Below are positions 34,228 through 42,854 of a stretch of 64,000 bases of DNA, in pieces (within the stretch, counting starts at the first letter, position 1; every line of letters begins with the position of its first letter). Position numbers and translations under genes: made by a program. The notes under the pieces were generated by a model, which was not told the DNA's origin, did no database searches, and saw only the letters and a program-made list of their open reading frames with translations. Source of the DNA: Nonomuraea harbinensis. Lineage in GTDB: Bacteria; Actinomycetota; Actinomycetes; Streptosporangiales; Streptosporangiaceae. The stretch spans positions 310,001 to 374,000 of the forward strand of contig NZ_JAHKRN010000001.1 in assembly GCF_019396385.1 (NCBI RefSeq). The letters are read 5' to 3'.

Positions 34228-35586
34228 TCACTGGCGTTTGCGATCGATGAAGCGCTGGAGCACCAGGAGGACGATCGGCAGGATCAGCCCGAAGGCGAAC
34301 TCCGTCAGCTGGATCAGCCGCGTCGCCAGCCCCACGGCTCCTCCCGCCACGAAGAGCGCCAGCGACACCCAGGCCCAGTGCCGCCGCAACCACCGCAGGG
34401 ACCCGGCCCACCGGCGCCGCGGCAGCAGAGGACGCAGGACCTTCTCGACCGGCAGGTTCTTCCCGTCCTTCTGCCGGATCACGATCGCGCCTTCCATCCA
34501 GACGATCTGATCCCCGGCACGAGCGAGCCTGACGCTCCTGAGCGACGCCAGAGCCTCCACGCACGGCCACACCCCCCACAGAGTGATGTGCGTGCTCATG
34601 CTGTTGGGCCAGGACCCGTCCTGACACTGCTCGGTGACGATCGTGTCGAAGGACTGCGCCAGCTTCCCCGCCACGTCGATGCTCTGGAACCGCGGATGGT
34701 GCATCAGCGCCGTGGTCGCCACCGGCAGCGCGTAGTGCGTCAGCGACGGCGGGAGCCAGTATTCCTCACCCTTGTCCGTACGCAGGAAGAGGACGTTGGA
34801 CCGTTCCTCCCGGTTGCCGATCTCCACCAGGGAGGAGGTGTCCAGGTTGGCGAGGAGCCAGTCGAAGCCCTTGGCCACCTTCTCGGACGCCGGGTCGACG
34901 CCGGCCTTCACCAGCGTGGTGAGCGCCGACGCGGTGTGGGCGACGCGTGCCTGGTTCTGGCGGGGCTCCGGGGCCCAGCCGCCGGAGGGCAGCTGCTGCT
35001 CGATCAGCCACGCCACCCCCTTGTCGACCGCCGGGTCCTGGGGAGCCGCCTCCAGCAGGGCCCGCAGGGCCAGGCACGTCAGCCAGACGCGGGGCGGGCA
35101 GCCGTGGAAGGAGCCCCAGCCGCCGGACCTGTCCTGGTTGTTGCGCAACCAGGACACCGCCCGTGAGAGGTCGGGAGTCGTCGGCTGGTCGTCGCACCGC
35201 AGCGCGGCCAGGCACCGCACCACCCAGGCGGTCGCCTCGACCACCGGCTTGTCCTTGCTGGTGTTGGTCCACCAGCCGCCGTCGACCTTCGGGTCCTCGT
35301 CCTTGATCTGGCGGACCCTGAGGAAGTTGAGCGCGTCCTCCAGGTGGGGCGGAGACTCACCGGCGACGTGGAAGGTCAGCAACGCCACGGCGGTCGCGGT
35401 CGCCCCCGGCGGGACGGTGTCGAGCAGGTGGTACCAGCCGCCCCCACCCGCGGGACTTTCGTTGTACATGTGGCGCAACAAGTCCATCGACTTGTTCAAC
35501 GCGCTCTCGGACTGTGACAGATCGATCTCGTGCAACAAGGCCGTTCCCCCGTCGCCGCTTTTCCCGGAGCGTACCGTTCCCCCCAT
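34228..35586 (-). CDS. Terpene-cyclase-repeat (prenyltransferase/squalene oxidase repeat) protein with C-terminal membrane anchor
   Basis: ATG 35586 is the most likely start (452 residues); in-frame options lie at 35640 and further upstream, none with a good ribosome site. The body is built of alpha/alpha-barrel repeats with the hallmark QxxxGGW pattern: SPAGGGGWYHLLD, DPKVDGGWW, NQDRSGGWGSF, EQQLPSGGWAPE, CQDGSWPNS. The DxDD motif of cyclases is not seen, so it is probably a binding or scaffolding protein. The C-terminus has two hydrophobic helices (about 400-440) and ends in basic residues (LQRFIDRKRQ), placing the repeats in the cytoplasm. Confidence 0.75.
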   Translation of the reverse strand: MGGTVRSGKSGDGGTALLHEIDLSQSESALNKSMDLLRHMYNESPAGGGGWYHLLDTVPPGATATAVALLTFHVAGESPPHLEDALNFLRVRQIKDEDPKVDGGWWTNTSKDKPVVEATAWVVRCLAALRCDDQPTTPDLSRAVSWLRNNQDRSGGWGSFHGCPPRVWLTCLALRALLEAAPQDPAVDKGVAWLIEQQLPSGGWAPEPRQNQARVAHTASALTTLVKAGVDPASEKVAKGFDWLLANLDTSSLVEIGNREERSNVLFLRTDKGEEYWLPPSLTHYALPVATTALMHHPRFQSIDVAGKLAQSFDTIVTEQCQDGSWPNSMSTHITLWGVWPCVEALASLRSVRLARAGDQIVWMEGAIVIRQKDGKNLPVEKVLRPLLPRRRWAGSLRWLRRHWAWVSLALFVAGGAVGLATRLIQLTEFAFGLILPIVLLVLQRFIDRKRQ

Positions 35587-35658
35587 TGCAACTAACGTCA
35601 CGCTTTGATATAGCCGAAGTGTCCGGTCGCCATACCTCATTCGGGACGGTGCAGATCG

Positions 35659-36711
35659 GTGGTTTCTGGCTTTCATATTGAGGACGGCGATATCCTCGCG
35701 CTCGGCGGCACGACCGAGTGGGCCCGATCCCTTCCCCGGCGGGCTTCCCTGGCCCATCTCACCGCCGCCACCGGGACCTGGGCCGCGGAGGAGGGCATTG
35801 TTACCCGCCCGATCCCGGGCGCCCTGCCGTATCCAGCGGGTTTCTACCGGCGCATTCACTGCGACATGGAGACGGCCGGTCATCTGCTGCCGGAAGCCTT
35901 CGAACTTCTCCCGCCCGGTGGAGTCCTCATTCCACGGTACGGCACGCCCGAAAATCGAGACGGCGCCGTCATGCTTTCTGAAAACGTGTCAAAAACCGGC
36001 CAAGAGGAGGATTGTGTATTTTGCGGTCGTTTCCGATTTCGGATGAACCAGGACGCCGGTGTTCCCGGTGCGGCCGCCCTGCTGTGGGGTGACGAGTTCC
36101 TGTGGTGCGCGCCGGATCTGGCTCCTCTCACCGAGGGCCATCTCCTGCTGGTCTCCACCCGCCACTTCCCGTGTTTCGGCGCGTGCCCGCCCGGCCTGGC
36201 GCGGGAGGTCGCCCGGCGGAAGCGGGAGGTCACCCGGTGGCTGGAGGCGGTCTACGGCCGTCCCGTGACGGTCTTCGAACACGGCCCGGCCGGCCCGCAC
36301 GGCGCCGGCTCCTGCATCGACCACGCGCACCTGCACTTCCTGCCCGGTGCCGGTCCGGTCCGCGCCGGGATCGAGCGCGAGGCCCTGTCCGGCGCCGACG
36401 CCGGCCCGGCGGAGCTGTTCCGGAGCGGCGTCTCCTACCTCTACCTGGAGGACGCCGAGGGAACGACCACCTACCCCTGCCCGGGGTCGTTGCCCACGCA
36501 GTTCCTCAGGATGTGCGCCGCGCCGCCCGGCGAGCGGTGGCGCTGGCAGGACATCTACGGGCTGCCGGAGACGCGCGAGCGGTTCATGGCGACGCTCCGG
36601 AAGCTGCTCCCGTCCGCGGAGGCCGGGGCGAGCCCCGTTGACAGCAGCCAGCGCAGCTCACGCGCGGTGAGCAGGTCGCCGAAGCCCATGGGATCGGAGA
36701 CGCGCTCGTAG
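35659..36711 (+). CDS. HIT-like nucleotide hydrolase/transferase with unusual N-terminal extension
   Basis: The open frame from GTG 35659 is 350 residues. The HIT part starts at about residue 117 (EDCVFCGRF) and carries CAPDLAPLTEGHLLLVSTRHF and the catalytic H-x-H-x-H triad in SCIDHAHLHFLPG. HIT proteins act on nucleoside phosphates or dinucleotides. The first 115 residues (HCDMETAGHLLPEAFELLPPGG and following) are not HIT-like; starts at 35970 or at a GTG near 35985 would remove most of them. The end runs 157 bases into the convergent PfkB gene, and the last 40 residues are probably an extension after loss of the original stop. Confidence 0.65.
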   Translation: MVSGFHIEDGDILALGGTTEWARSLPRRASLAHLTAATGTWAAEEGIVTRPIPGALPYPAGFYRRIHCDMETAGHLLPEAFELLPPGGVLIPRYGTPENRDGAVMLSENVSKTGQEEDCVFCGRFRFRMNQDAGVPGAAALLWGDEFLWCAPDLAPLTEGHLLLVSTRHFPCFGACPPGLAREVARRKREVTRWLEAVYGRPVTVFEHGPAGPHGAGSCIDHAHLHFLPGAGPVRAGIEREALSGADAGPAELFRSGVSYLYLEDAEGTTTYPCPGSLPTQFLRMCAAPPGERWRWQDIYGLPETRERFMATLRKLLPSAEAGASPVDSSQRSSRAVSRSPKPMGSETRS

Positions 36712-39007: not shown

Positions 39008-39538
39008 GTGCACTATTTGGACGTGGCCTGTCGGCTGCTGCTCGCGGCGGTCTTCGTCACGGCGGCCTGGACCAAGGTCTCGGGGAAGGCCGGCTGGGCC
39101 GCCTTCGTCGGTTCGCTGCGCCAACTGGACCAGGTGCCCGGCCCCCTCCTGCGGCCGGCGGCGTTCGCCGTGGTCGCGACCGAGATCGTCGTCGCCGTGC
39201 TGCTGCTCGTCCCCGTGCGGGTGGCGGGGTGGATCGGCTTCGCCCTGGCAGGCTGCCTCCTGCTGTCCTTCACCCTGGTGATCGGGCGGGCGCTGTCGCG
39301 CGGCAACCGCGCCCCCTGCCGGTGCTTCGGAGCGTCGAGCACGCCCCTGGGCCCGATCCACATCGTGCGCAACCTGATCCTCGTCTGCGTCGCCGTCCTC
39401 GGGCTGGCCGGCGCCTCCGCGCCGGGCGCGTTCGAGGTGCCGTACGCCCTGCTCGCCGGTGTCGCCGGACTGGTCGCCGGCATCCTGATCACGGCGTTCG
39501 AGGACCTCGTCGCGTTGTTCAGGCCGACGGCGAGATAA
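39008..39538 (+). CDS. MauE/DoxX-family redox membrane protein (second copy)
   Basis: GTG 39008 gives 176 residues with four to five membrane helices (about 5-22, 52-70, 75-94, 115-130, 140-160). Cys104 and Cys106 (APCRCFGASSTPLG) form the C-x-C-F-G-A motif also seen in the copy at 6.3-7.0 kb. MauE-type proteins are related to the VKOR/DsbB-like role of providing oxidising power for disulfides. The next gene encodes a membrane-tethered thioredoxin, the usual companion (MauD-like). It opens the peptide export cluster. Confidence 0.82.
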   Translation: MHYLDVACRLLLAAVFVTAAWTKVSGKAGWAAFVGSLRQLDQVPGPLLRPAAFAVVATEIVVAVLLLVPVRVAGWIGFALAGCLLLSFTLVIGRALSRGNRAPCRCFGASSTPLGPIHIVRNLILVCVAVLGLAGASAPGAFEVPYALLAGVAGLVAGILITAFEDLVALFRPTAR

Positions 39539-39666
39539 CAGCCGGTTTGATCCCTATGTCGTGTTATGCGCAGAGAATGCCCTGTCGATAATCATGGACC
39601 GCTTCGCCTGACTAGACCTGTACTATCCTGGCCGCTCCGAAAACGATCAACTCGGAGGATTACGCC

Positions 39667-40218
39667 GTGTCAGTCTTGTGGGCCGCGTTAGCGATCGTCT
39701 TCATCATCTGCCTGCTCAACCTGGTGCTCACCGTCGCGGTGATCCGGCGCCTGCGCGAGCACACCGAGCTGATCAACCGAGGGGGCGGGCATCCCCCCGG
39801 ACAGGAAGAGATCACCCTGCCCGCCGGCGCCCGCGTCGGCGAGTTCAGCGCCGTCACGGGCGACGACCGGACGGTGACCCGTGACGATCTGCGGCCGGGG
39901 ATGCTCGTGGCCTTCTTCTCGCCGCGCTGCCCGACCTGCGAGGAGCAGAAACCCGCCTTCATCCGGTACGCGTCCGGCCTGCCGGGCGGGCGCGACCAGG
40001 TGATCGCGGTGCTCCTCGGCTCGCCCGAGGAACTGGGCGGGCTGCGCGAGGAGCTGGGCGGGATCGCGCAGATCGTCATCGAAGGGGACGTCGACGGCGC
40101 CATGGCCGCGGCGTTCGGCCTGCGCGGATACCCGGCCTTCTGCCTCATGGGCCAGGACGGCGTCCTCCAGGTGACCGGTTTCAAGGTCGACGTCCTTCCC
40201 GACTCCGTGGCCCTGTGA
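39667..40218 (+). CDS. Membrane-tethered thioredoxin-like protein (TlpA/MauD-like)
   Basis: GTG 39667 is eight bases after GGAGG; 183 residues. One N-terminal helix (about 5-26) anchors a thioredoxin-fold domain with active site Cys88-Pro-Thr-Cys91 (FFSPRCPTCEEQ) and a cis-proline region (GLRGYPAFCLM). The domain should face the outside and oxidise, reduce or isomerise disulfides of an exported substrate, together with the MauE-like protein. Its stop overlaps the next start (GTGA), so it is coupled to the ABC transporter. Confidence 0.85.
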   Translation: MSVLWAALAIVFIICLLNLVLTVAVIRRLREHTELINRGGGHPPGQEEITLPAGARVGEFSAVTGDDRTVTRDDLRPGMLVAFFSPRCPTCEEQKPAFIRYASGLPGGRDQVIAVLLGSPEELGGLREELGGIAQIVIEGDVDGAMAAAFGLRGYPAFCLMGQDGVLQVTGFKVDVLPDSVAL

Positions 40219-42017
40219 CGACCGGCAGGCGGGTGGCTCTCGCCGCCTGGCGGCTGGCCTGGCGGTTCGCGGCGCGTACGACCATCGCCCAGCTCGTGCT
40301 CACGGTGCTGGGCGCGGGTGCGCCGGTCGCCGTCGCCTGGCTGACGAAGATCGTCTTCGATCAGCTGAGCGCCCCCGGCGGGCCCGCGGACCTGACGGGG
40401 CCGATCGCCGGCCTGGTCGCCGCGGGCATCCTGACGGCCCTGCTGGCGCAGGTGCTGCGCTACCTGCGGGCCGAACAGGGACGGATCGTCGCACTCGCCG
40501 CCCTCGACCAGCTCTACGCGGCGGTCAACCGGCTGGTCGGTCTGGGACGGTTCGAGGACCCGCAGTTCGCGGACCGGTTGCGCTTCGCCCGTCACGCCGG
40601 CGGCTCAGGACCGGCCGAGATCGTGGCCGTGAGCCTGAACCTGCTGCAGCAAGTCCTGGTGACCGCCGGGTTCGTCGTCTCACTGGTCACCGTCAGCCCC
40701 GTTCTGGCGGTCGTCGTCCTGGTCGGCGCGCTCCCCGCGGTCGGCGCCGAGTTCGCGCTCGCCCGCCGGCGGGCCGAGACCATGAACACCGTGGGGCCGC
40801 ACGAACGGCGCGAGCTGTTCTACGGCCAGCTGCTGTCCGACGTCGAGGCGGCCACCGAGGTGCGGCTGTTCGGCGTCGGCTCCTTCCTCCGGGGACGGAT
40901 GCTCGGCGAACGCCGTACCGCGAACCGGGTGGAGCGGGCCATGGACCGGCGGGCCCTGAGCACGGAGGCGCTGCTGACCATGCTCTCGACCGGGGTGGCG
41001 GGCGGCTGCCTGGTCTGGGTGGTCAACGCCGCGGCCGCCGGAACGGTCACCGTCGGTGACGTGGCCATGCTGGTCGCCGCGGTGGCCGCGGTGCAGGCGG
41101 CGCTGCTCGGCGTCGTGCGCGACCTGGCCGGAGCGCACACCCAGCTGCTGATGTTCGGTCACTACCTCGCCGTCGTGGAAGCGGAGCAGGACCTGCCGGT
41201 GCCGGCCCGTCCCCGTCCGGTGGAACCGTTGCGGCACGGCATCGAGCTGCGGGACGTCTGGTTCCGCTACCGGGAGGACCTCCCGTGGGTGCTGCGCGGC
41301 GTCACCGTGACGATCCCGAAGGGCCGGGCGGTGGCCCTCGCCGGATACAACGGCGCCGGCAAGAGCACGATCATCAAGCTCCTGTGCCGCTTCTACGACC
41401 CGGACCGCGGCGAGATCCTCTGGGACGGCGTCAACCTGCGCGACCTCGACCCGGCGCAGCTGCGCGCCCGGATCGCGGGCGTCTTCCAGGACTTCGTCTC
41501 CTACGAGCTGTCGGCCGCCGAGAACATCGGCATCGGTGACGCGGAGGCCCTGACGGACCGGCCACGCATCGAGGCCGCCGCGCGGGACGCGGGGGTGCAC
41601 GACATCCTCAGCGGGCTCCCGCACGGGTACGACACGCTGCTCAGCCGCATCTACTTCGCCGGCGACGAGCTCAACGGGACGACCCCGGGCACCACGCTCT
41701 CCGGCGGGCAGTGGCAACGGGTCGCCATCGCCCGCAGCTTCCTGCGCGGCGGCCGTGACCTGCTCATCCTCGACGAGCCGAGCGCCCGCCTCGACGCCGA
41801 GGCCGAACACGAGATCCACCAGGGCTTCCGGCGGTTGCGCGACGGCGGCACCAGCCTGCTGGTGTCGCACCGGCTCGGCACGATCCGGGACGCGGACCTG
41901 ATCCTGGTGCTCGACGGCGGCACCGTGGCGCAAGCCGGACGGCACGACGAGCTGGTCGAGGCAGGAGGGCTCTACGCCGAGCTGTTCTCCCTCCAAGCCG
42001 CCGGATATCGGGATTGA
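40215..42017 (+). CDS. ABC transporter, fused permease and ATPase (peptide-exporter type)
   Basis: The protein has 600 residues: six membrane helices (to about residue 310) and an ATPase domain with Walker A GYNGAGKST (about 376-384), signature LSGGQ (about 494), Walker B LLILDEPSARLD (about 515) and an H-loop in LLVSHRLGTI. It lacks an N-terminal C39 peptidase, so leader removal must be done by another protease; a signal-peptidase-like gene is present two genes on. Half-size exporters of this type carry ribosomal peptides and lipids. Coupled to the thioredoxin gene and followed by the cysteine-rich peptide gene. Confidence 0.88.
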   Translation: MTTGRRVALAAWRLAWRFAARTTIAQLVLTVLGAGAPVAVAWLTKIVFDQLSAPGGPADLTGPIAGLVAAGILTALLAQVLRYLRAEQGRIVALAALDQLYAAVNRLVGLGRFEDPQFADRLRFARHAGGSGPAEIVAVSLNLLQQVLVTAGFVVSLVTVSPVLAVVVLVGALPAVGAEFALARRRAETMNTVGPHERRELFYGQLLSDVEAATEVRLFGVGSFLRGRMLGERRTANRVERAMDRRALSTEALLTMLSTGVAGGCLVWVVNAAAAGTVTVGDVAMLVAAVAAVQAALLGVVRDLAGAHTQLLMFGHYLAVVEAEQDLPVPARPRPVEPLRHGIELRDVWFRYREDLPWVLRGVTVTIPKGRAVALAGYNGAGKSTIIKLLCRFYDPDRGEILWDGVNLRDLDPAQLRARIAGVFQDFVSYELSAAENIGIGDAEALTDRPRIEAAARDAGVHDILSGLPHGYDTLLSRIYFAGDELNGTTPGTTLSGGQWQRVAIARSFLRGGRDLLILDEPSARLDAEAEHEIHQGFRRLRDGGTSLLVSHRLGTIRDADLILVLDGGTVAQAGRHDELVEAGGLYAELFSLQAAGYRD

Positions 42018-42043
42018 CCCGGACCTGAATGGATCTTTACTGT
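42014..42043 (+). promoter_or_regulatory. Candidate promoter for the cysteine-rich peptide gene
   Basis: TTGACC (42014-42019) overlaps the stop codon of the ABC gene and is 18 bases from TACTGT (42038-42043). Start of transcription near 42050 would leave a leader of about 70 bases containing the dyad GACGCC-TACC-GGCGTC and GGGAG before ATG 42122. Confidence 0.4.
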
Positions 42044-42121
42044 AGGTCGAAACGGGTCAAGATCGGGCGACGCCTACCGGCGTCAAGGAAACGGCCCGTG
42101 AACCTCACAAGGGAGTAGAGC

Positions 42122-42328
42122 ATGCTGCGACTCTTCAACACCCTCGGCGACCGTATGTTGTCGGCTTTCGTGCCCAAGGTCACCGCTCAAGCCGCCTGCA
42201 CGACCTGGAAGGAATTCTGCTACTGCAGCGGCGTCTATTCCATCTCCCGGTGGTGCGACCGCGGTTGCGACAGCAGCCAGACGACCTGCGGGCCCTGCAA
42301 CGTAAGAGGGGCCAAGTACAGCTGCTAG
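42122..42328 (+). CDS. Leader-bearing cysteine-rich peptide (68 aa, 8 Cys), candidate exported product
   Basis: ATG 42122 follows GGGAGTAGAGC. Residues 1-24 (MLRLFNTLGDRMLSAFVPKV then TAQA) form an amphipathic leader ending in an A-x-A-like site; the remaining 44 residues contain all eight cysteines (26, 33, 35, 45, 49, 56, 59, 68), with motifs CYC, CDRGC, CGPC and a terminal Cys. Codon choice is ordinary for the genome. Position between a redox pair plus ABC exporter and a signal-peptidase-like gene points to a disulfide-stabilised secreted peptide whose maturation genes surround it. I do not recognise the family; antimicrobial or signalling activity is inference. Confidence 0.75.
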   Translation: MLRLFNTLGDRMLSAFVPKVTAQAACTTWKEFCYCSGVYSISRWCDRGCDSSQTTCGPCNVRGAKYSC

Positions 42329-42348
42329 CCGACACGTAGGGCGCGAGT

Positions 42349-42373
42349 GGCCGCCGGCCCGGAGCCGGTGGCC
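42349..42373 (+). terminator. Hairpin after the cysteine-rich peptide gene
   Basis: GGCCGCCGGC (42349-42358) pairs with GCCGGTGGCC (42364-42373) with one mismatch and a 5-base loop. No T-run follows. It could limit read-through into the peptidase gene and so raise peptide expression over the enzyme. Confidence 0.4.
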
Positions 42374-42407
42374 GCTTCCGCGTCAGCGCTCCCTGAACCC
42401 CGCACCG

Positions 42408-42854
42408 ATGAGTGAGGCGCCTTCCGTGCAGGTCGTGATCGCAGTGCTCCTGGCCGGTGCCGGCGTGGCGGCCCTCGCCGCGGTGCTGCGGCGCAGGTTC
42501 GTGCTGGCCACGGTCGCGGGCTTCAGCATGGCGCCCACCTTGCGTCCCGGCGACCGTCTCCTCGTACGCCGCGCGCCCCTGTCACGCCTGAGCGTGGGCG
42601 ACATCGTGGTGGTCGTGCCGGACGCCCGGATGGCGGACCCGCGCCACCCCGCGGGGTACGTGATCAAACGGCTGGCCGCCGTACCGGGGGACCCCGTACC
42701 GGATCACGTACCGTCGCCCGCGCACGAACGCATCCCACCGGGCCGGATGGCGATCCTGGGAGACAACCCCGACGCCAGCCGCGACTCGCGGGACTACGGC
42801 CTGGTCACCCAGGAGCAGCTCGTCGGCGTCGTCGTACGCGCCATCGGCACCTGA
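42408..42854 (+). CDS. Signal peptidase I-like protease (S26 family)
   Basis: The protein has 148 residues with one N-terminal helix (about 8-28). The catalytic Ser40 lies in VAGFSMAPTLRPGDRLL and the general-base Lys87 in GYVIKRLAAVPGD; the C-terminal ILGDNPDASRDSRDYG segment matches box E. It is shorter than housekeeping signal peptidases. Located 80 bases after the cysteine-rich peptide gene it is the obvious candidate to remove that peptide's leader. ATG 42408 has no clear ribosome site; a GTG a few codons later is possible. Confidence 0.85.
   Translation: MSEAPSVQVVIAVLLAGAGVAALAAVLRRRFVLATVAGFSMAPTLRPGDRLLVRRAPLSRLSVGDIVVVVPDARMADPRHPAGYVIKRLAAVPGDPVPDHVPSPAHERIPPGRMAILGDNPDASRDSRDYGLVTQEQLVGVVVRAIGT

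What the first reader, a model, noticed from the sequence alone, without database searches (positions are those of the whole stretch)
39008..42854. Compact system for a disulfide-rich exported peptide: MauE, thioredoxin, ABC exporter, 8-Cys leader peptide, signal peptidase
Five same-strand genes, two pairs coupled or nearly so, provide everything needed to oxidise, export and trim one peptide. The peptide (42122-42328) has a 24-residue leader ending in AQA and eight cysteines in 44 residues. The exporter lacks a C39 peptidase, and a short S26 protease follows. MauE and MauD-like proteins are known to serve disulfide maturation of a cysteine-rich light chain; use of such a pair with an ABC exporter and a small peptide would be a different application. 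I know of no described bacteriocin or signalling system with this gene set.
Basis: partly seen in the sequence, partly recalled or inferred. Interest (0 to 1): 0.85.

Follow-up and report, generated by a model that had tools for sequence, protein, structure and literature searches.

The report
Cassette for secreted disulfide-rich peptides
A small gene cassette in soil actinomycetes appears to make, export, trim and fold a very varied family of short cysteine-rich peptides, which look like an almost unstudied group of bacterial weapons or signals.

Summary
The five genes and the 68-residue peptide are present as described. The peptide belongs to a large unnamed family with a conserved leader (M…LGDRLL…VPK..A.A) and a hypervariable Cys-rich core. 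In the genus (Nonomuraea), the peptide profile and the cassette's thioredoxin profile each hit 49 of 53 genomes, and the same four lack both. A peptide lies beside 147 of 150 thioredoxin genes. Twelve of 12 loci of plasmid-collection records, fetched through the ABC gene, carry one. All 129 distinct cores counted have an even number of cysteines. S26 and thioredoxin catalytic residues and a MauE CxCFG motif are nearly invariant. Best reading: a dedicated leader-guided export, S26 trimming and oxidative folding system for disulfide-locked peptides, probably antagonistic; every mechanistic step and the function are inferred. decRiPPter (PMC7794033, 2020) already flagged three Streptomyces mauE candidate RiPP families with precursors of at least 8 Cys, so the idea is not wholly new; my searches found no characterised member.

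The parts
39008..39538 (+). MauE-family membrane protein, probable redox partner of the thioredoxin (CxCFG motif)
   Evidence: Pfam PF07291 E 9.3e-27; CxCFG and the K, E and R at fragment positions 21, 57, 119 in 69 of 69 homologues from the fetched loci at E 1e-25 or better
39667..40218 (+). membrane-anchored thioredoxin-like protein (MauD/TlpA-like) with CPTC active site
   Evidence: Pfam AhpC-TSA E 8.6e-7; the two Cys in 92 of 92 and 89 of 92 homologues, N-terminal hydrophobic segment then RRLREHT
40215..42017 (+). ABC exporter (fused permease/ATPase), no C39 peptidase domain
   Evidence: Pfam ABC_tran E 1e-27, no Peptidase_C39; MsbA-type best in NCBIfam, far below cut-off
42110..42115 (+). 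ribosome-binding-like site AGGGAG of the peptide gene
   Evidence: read from sequence
42122..42193 (+). 24-residue leader MLRLFNTLGDRMLSAFVPKVTAQA
   Evidence: D10, P18, A24 invariant in 40 diverse homologues; pN/pS 0.135 in the near clade
42194..42325 (+). 44-residue core with 8 cysteines (stop codon to 42328)
   Evidence: 129 of 129 distinct family cores counted have an even Cys number
42408..42854 (+). short S26 signal-peptidase-like protease, presumed leader peptidase
   Evidence: Pfam Peptidase_S26 E 8.4e-20; presumed catalytic Ser in 93 of 93 and Lys in 92 of 93 homologues

Best explanation
The locus is a dedicated production cassette for one secreted, fully disulfide-bonded peptide. The cytosolic precursor carries a conserved, non-Sec-like leader that the ABC exporter recognises (inferred). 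The exporter moves it across the membrane (inferred). The S26 peptidase, anchored with its catalytic domain outside, cuts after the conserved A-x-A (inferred from the nearly invariant catalytic residues and the invariant -1 Ala). The membrane-anchored thioredoxin introduces or isomerises disulfides in the core and is re-oxidised by MauE (inferred from their CxxC and CxC motifs and from the role proposed for MauE in methylamine dehydrogenase). The released core, 28-47 residues in 60 family members, is locked by two to five disulfides. Conserved leader, hypervariable mostly cationic aromatic core, several paralogues per genome, tandem precursor arrays and plasmid carriage fit an antagonistic (bacteriocin-like) peptide family best; the activity itself is unproven.
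For: Co-occurrence: peptide and Trx profiles each in 49 of 53 genus genomes, with the same four lacking both. A listed peptide within 6 kb of 122 of 150 Trx genes against about 0.7 expected, plus 25 of the 27 remaining ones that I fetched. Peptide in 12 of 12 plasmid-collection loci fetched by the ABC sequence. Even core Cys count in 129 of 129 distinct peptides (79 with 6, 38 with 8, 6 with 4, 6 with 10), while Y, G, R, T, S are even in 43-57%. Nearly invariant redox and protease residues. Leader identity 46% against core 28%, or 15% without shared Cys. Net core charge +1.4 on average and positive in 80% of 60. Tandem arrays: six precursors before one Trx-ABC-S26-MauE set in L090.
Against: No near-universal immunity gene is visible among flanking ORFs of 90 aa or more; after the regulator the commonest cluster is an ABC transporter family in 9 of 42 locus groups and an unexamined one in 6. 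19 of 150 listed peptide genes have no listed Trx within 6 kb, and the second copy in the window's own genome has no Trx or MauE in its 17-kb stretch. Two of 27 fetched Trx loci (L156, L167) have no intact peptide. Structure prediction was uninformative (pLDDT 41.9) and no PDB sequence relative was found. Disulfides, export, cleavage and activity are not measured. One member has a leader cysteine (L102).
Confidence: 0.72

Rival explanations
1. The peptide is a signal: the processed peptide or its leader is sensed by the adjacent HTH-NB-ARC-TPR (STAND) regulator, so the cassette is a peptide quorum-sensing system.
For: An HTH_31/NB-ARC/TPR regulator is found in 46 of 114 cassette loci and in 0 of 18 fetched loci with fewer than two of Trx/ABC/S26 and no peptide (mostly MauE-centred loci, not random ones). 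In 35 of the 46 loci with both a regulator and a peptide the two lie within 1 kb.
Against: The regulator is absent from the whole 64-kb window and not found in the fetched stretch of 68 of 114 cassette loci. It may simply control expression. Core hypervariability with up to nine peptide matches per genome fits signalling less well.
Confidence: 0.17
2. The cysteines bind a metal or are converted to thioethers or other linkages; MauE and Trx keep them reduced rather than oxidise them.
For: Cys-rich cores exist in metal-binding peptides (recalled). The window's MauE weakly matches the HvfX Cu-binding RiPP maturation family (E 3e-5, 24 bits against a cut-off of 80).
Against: Strict even parity in 129 of 129 cores is expected for disulfides and not for metal sites. 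No tailoring enzyme was seen among the recurrent neighbour families that I put to Pfam.
Confidence: 0.08
3. The peptide is a structural subunit of a periplasmic or secreted enzyme, as in methylamine dehydrogenase, where MauE/MauD serve the Cys-rich light chain.
For: MauE and a MauD-like thioredoxin are shared with the mau cluster.
Against: No near-universal enzyme gene beside the cassette. The methylamine dehydrogenase light-chain model hits 0 of 53 genus genomes, though its control did not ring either. Cores are only 28-47 residues and hypervariable.
Confidence: 0.03

Closest known systems
decRiPPter mauE candidate RiPP families in Streptomyces (PMC7794033; passages and section 7 read)
   Same: mauE (one family also mauD) with a predicted precursor of at least 8 Cys; the strict filter also required transporter, peptidase and regulator; a role of these proteins in modifying the precursor proposed there
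   Different: Three Streptomyces families among 42 candidates, in one paragraph; no leader motif, S26 role, Cys parity or experiment on them in the text I read.
mau (methylamine dehydrogenase) maturation genes mauE/mauD
   Same: MauE and a MauD-like thioredoxin thought to serve a Cys-rich exported protein
   Different: No methylamine dehydrogenase light-chain hit (0 of 53, control silent); the partner here is a short hypervariable leader peptide with its own ABC exporter and S26 protease
Actifensin and other defensin-like bacteriocins (PMC6989792, passages seen)
   Same: Actinobacterial leader peptide with a Cys-rich core (37 aa, three disulfides) and ABC transporter genes nearby; several paralogues
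   Different: Different leader (GxE before the core), different neighbours (subtilisin-like protease, alpha/beta hydrolase, LuxR); thioredoxin is not mentioned in the paper's text
Class II bacteriocins with C39 peptidase-containing ABC exporters (recalled)
   Same: Leader-guided ABC export and proteolytic leader removal
   Different: No double-glycine leader and no C39 domain; a separate S26 serine protease and an A-x-A site instead

Membership tests
RiPP (ribosomal leader-core natural product) | ribosomal precursor with conserved leader and variable core | tested here: met
   leader 46% against core 28% mean identity, 15% without shared Cys, 40 sequences; A2 alignment
RiPP (ribosomal leader-core natural product) | post-translational modification beyond disulfides or cleavage | tested here: inconclusive
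   redox, export, protease and regulator genes are what recurs most; chemistry not measurable here
decRiPPter mauE candidate families | same precursor family | not testable with these tools
   S2 Table of PMC7794033 not available (supplement look-ups capped at 0); Streptomyces plasmid cassettes of the present family do exist
class II (double-glycine) bacteriocin | GG leader site and C39 peptidase on the exporter | tested here: not met
   A-x-A before the core; no C39 domain
methylamine dehydrogenase (mau) cluster | light chain MauA (PF02975) and other mau genes | tested here: inconclusive
   0 of 53 genus genomes match PF02975, but no control genome rang; none in the cassette
Sec signal-peptide secreted peptide | hydrophobic h-region without conserved charges | tested here: inconclusive
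   conserved D-R pair in mid-leader; longest uncharged run median 7 (max 11), best 10-residue hydropathy median 1.1 (max 1.7) in 40 leaders; this speaks against it, but no signal-peptide predictor was run
defensin-like bacteriocin (actifensin type) | sequence or fold similarity to defensins | tested here: inconclusive
   no Pfam, NCBIfam or PDB sequence match beyond chance level; model pLDDT 41.9
disulfide-bonded exported peptide | all core cysteines paired | tested here: inconclusive
   even count in 129 of 129 distinct cores, consistent; bonds themselves not measured

The most novel reading that the evidence does not exclude
This is a new, widespread class of bacterial disulfide-locked mini-proteins with its own leader-guided export, S26 trimming and oxidative-folding line (MauE-thioredoxin), in which one conserved leader carries almost any 4-, 6-, 8- or 10-Cys core. 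It would be a natural combinatorial library of knottin-like peptides across Streptosporangiaceae and Streptomycetaceae.
Probability: 0.5. Interest if true: 0.87.

Novelty: new variant of a known kind. Interest (0 to 1): 0.74.

Why it matters
If right, nearly every Nonomuraea genome, many of its relatives and some Streptomyces carry one to several uncharacterised disulfide-rich peptides made by a self-contained five-gene line. That would be a large source of stable mini-proteins. It would offer a bacterial secretion and folding cassette for Cys-rich peptides that are hard to make elsewhere, and a concrete role for MauE/MauD-type proteins outside methylamine metabolism. The leader-core split is a directly testable hypothesis in laboratory Streptomyces.

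Tried and rejected
Chance ORF: rejected by conservation and pN/pS. Known family: no Pfam or NCBIfam model fits 40 members beyond chance-level hits. Viral origin: the single-sequence scan of viral contigs, which sees only close relatives, found none. Single-peptide tblastn against plasmids found nothing and is plainly too insensitive, since the ABC route found 12 peptide-bearing loci in the same collection. Fold: AlphaFold on 6 close sequences failed (pLDDT 41.9), so no fold search was made. The phylum-wide peptide search found 2 of 396 genomes, one of them the window's own, but scored only 15 candidates per genome and is insensitive. Fulvocin C was considered from memory as an 8-Cys bacteriocin; the search gave nothing usable and no comparison was made. 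MauE as a marker was rejected: the best-scoring MauE gene of all 53 genomes lies away from any listed peptide, and of 20 MauE loci fetched, picked mostly among those without a listed peptide, 3 had one (L144, L146, L154).
Full report
What is there. Searches confirm five + strand genes: MauE (39008-39538), a membrane-anchored thioredoxin-like protein (39667-40218), an ABC exporter without a C39 domain (40215-42017), a 68-codon ORF (42122-42328) and a short S26 peptidase (42408-42854). Only the Trx-ABC pair overlaps; the other gaps are 79-128 bp. The peptide is MLRLFNTLGDRMLSAFVPKVTAQA followed by a 44-residue core with eight Cys. No Pfam or NCBIfam model matches it.

The ORF is a gene. A single-sequence search finds relatives in 25 of 54 genomes of the genus. 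With a profile of 40 diverse members (A2), 49 of 53 genus genomes match at E 0.01 or better, with one to nine matches each. In a sample of the order 92 of 200 genomes match, in 18 of 45 genera; the matching genomes listed are all of the window's family, and the list does not show how many other families were sampled. An earlier family sample with a narrower profile gave 36 of 120 genomes. In eight near-clade sequences, the window's included, the leader has pN/pS 0.135, the whole core 0.574 and the last 18 residues 0.97.

A conserved leader and a hypervariable core. Across 40 sequences D10, P18 and A24 of the leader are invariant, and R11 and A22 at least 90%. Mean pairwise identity is 46% in the leader, 28% in the core and 15% in the core without shared Cys. 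In the largest set there were 133 profile hits with a start codon (3 more had none and were dropped), 130 of them distinct; 129 have a definable core, and L104, whose frame runs on, was dropped. Every one of the 129 cores has an even Cys number: 79 with six, 38 with eight, six with four, six with ten. Other residues are even in 43-57%. The sequences share ancestry, so this is not a simple probability, but the cores are diverse. I read it as strong evidence that all cysteines pair.

The machinery goes with the peptide. A Trx profile (A3) hits the same 49 of 53 genomes; G001, G010, G015 and G025 lack both. Of the 150 Trx genes, 122 have a listed peptide within 6 kb, against about 0.7 expected. 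The peptide list was cut at 150 rows, so I fetched 27 of the 28 others: 25 have a leader peptide (L144, L146, L154, covering five Trx genes; the rest, L173 with a profile E of 0.03 but a visible leader). L156 has none and L167 only a core-like fragment; the last lies at a contig end and was not fetched. In reverse, 131 of 150 listed peptides have a listed Trx within 6 kb. As a test that does not start from the peptide, tblastn of the exporter against plasmid records gave 29 records. I fetched 12 (the other 17 are further S. clavuligerus and S. atratus records), and all 12 have the peptide, including S. clavuligerus, S. atratus, S. nigrescens, two Embleya and N. gerenzanensis. In the five with gene tables these peptides are called hypothetical proteins. 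Over all 136 loci examined, 114 have at least two of Trx, ABC and S26; 107 of these have a profile-level peptide and 89 a MauE. Most of these loci were fetched because of a peptide, so that figure is not independent.

Results against a simple rule. In a class sample, 30 of 394 genomes have the Trx (11 of 137 genera). An f3 locus met earlier, L121, has the whole cassette and a leader peptide.

Active-site conservation. Among homologues in the fetched loci, the S26 Ser is in 93 of 93 and Lys in 92 of 93. The thioredoxin cysteines are in 92 and 89 of 92. The MauE CxCFG motif is in 69 of 69. The leader is unlike a Sec signal: a conserved Asp-Arg sits in its middle and its best 10-residue hydropathy has a median of 1.1; no signal-peptide predictor was run. 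That S26 signal peptidases favour A-x-A is recalled knowledge; the proposed role of MauE in disulfides of a methylamine dehydrogenase subunit is stated in PMC7794033.

Neighbourhood. In the first 49 loci (42 groups with the window clade counted once), the gene that recurs most beyond the cassette is an HTH-NB-ARC-TPR regulator, in 29 groups; several smaller clusters overlap it and look like its other frames. Next come an ABC transporter family in 9 groups and an unexamined family in 6. The ABC family could in principle serve immunity. Over all loci the regulator is in 46 of 114 cassette loci and in 0 of 18 fetched loci without peptide and with fewer than two of Trx, ABC and S26; in 35 of the 46 loci with both it lies within 1 kb of the peptide. 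It is not in the window. Tandem precursors occur, for instance six before one Trx-ABC-S26-MauE set plus one after it in L090. In the window clade the peptide follows the ABC gene; in most other loci it comes first.

Reading. Leader-guided ABC export, S26 cleavage after A-x-A and MauE/thioredoxin-driven disulfide formation explain every conserved part. These steps are inferred; none is shown. The function of the cores is open. Antagonism is my first choice because of hypervariability, positive charge (mean +1.4, positive in 80% of 60), aromatic content of 15%, multiplicity and plasmid carriage. Signalling through the regulator is the main rival. The lack of a near-universal immunity gene speaks against a classical bacteriocin, unless an exporter gives immunity or the target is not a relative.

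What is known. The decRiPPter paper (PMC7794033; passages and section 7 read) lists three Streptomyces families with mauE, one also with mauD, each with a predicted precursor of at least eight Cys, and suggests that these proteins modify the precursor. I could not look at its S2 Table. Searches for MauE, RiPP, disulfide-rich and Nonomuraea combinations showed, in titles, listings and abstract starts, no other description in the held open-access library, which lacks most subscription papers. I therefore call it a new variant of a known kind: a leader-core exported peptide with new machinery, previously flagged but, as far as these searches go, neither defined nor characterised.

Noticed in passing
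G000:C71:34473-34637 (L087:7474-7638): Second, 4-Cys copy of the peptide in the window's own genome, with an ABC exporter downstream, an opposite-strand S26 gene and a divergent NB-ARC regulator, but no thioredoxin or MauE found in the 17-kb stretch; it may use the window's pair in trans.
   Followed up: partly
L090:7040-12962 (G114:C28): Tandem array of six different Cys-rich precursors before one Trx-ABC-S26-MauE set, plus one more after it.
   Followed up: partly
G031:C49:68685, 77454 and 98197: Three paralogous peptide genes with cassette genes within about 30 kb of one genome.
   Followed up: no
L159:7677-11025 (G008:C4): A MauE gene and a weak thioredoxin match lie some 2 kb from a Cys-rich ORF with a basic then hydrophobic, secretion-like N-terminus, possibly a different MauE-served exported protein.
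   Followed up: no
L190-L193 (four genomes of another family, f93): MauE beside a lower-scoring ABC exporter and a second ABC gene, without S26; L191 and L192 have only marginal peptide-profile hits (E 0.02-0.03). Possibly a separate MauE-ABC system.
   Followed up: no
G000:C64:288082-288480 (L142) and equivalents: Every one of 53 genus genomes has a best-scoring MauE gene far from any listed peptide; its role is unknown.
   Followed up: no
L147, L148, L150, L152: MauE genes directly beside a different ABC transporter (about 430-466 bits to the cassette's ABC profile), with no leader peptide found.
   Followed up: no
window 34228-35883 (-): Squalene-hopene-cyclase-like repeat protein with a C-terminal hydrophobic segment, some 3 kb before the cassette.
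   Followed up: no
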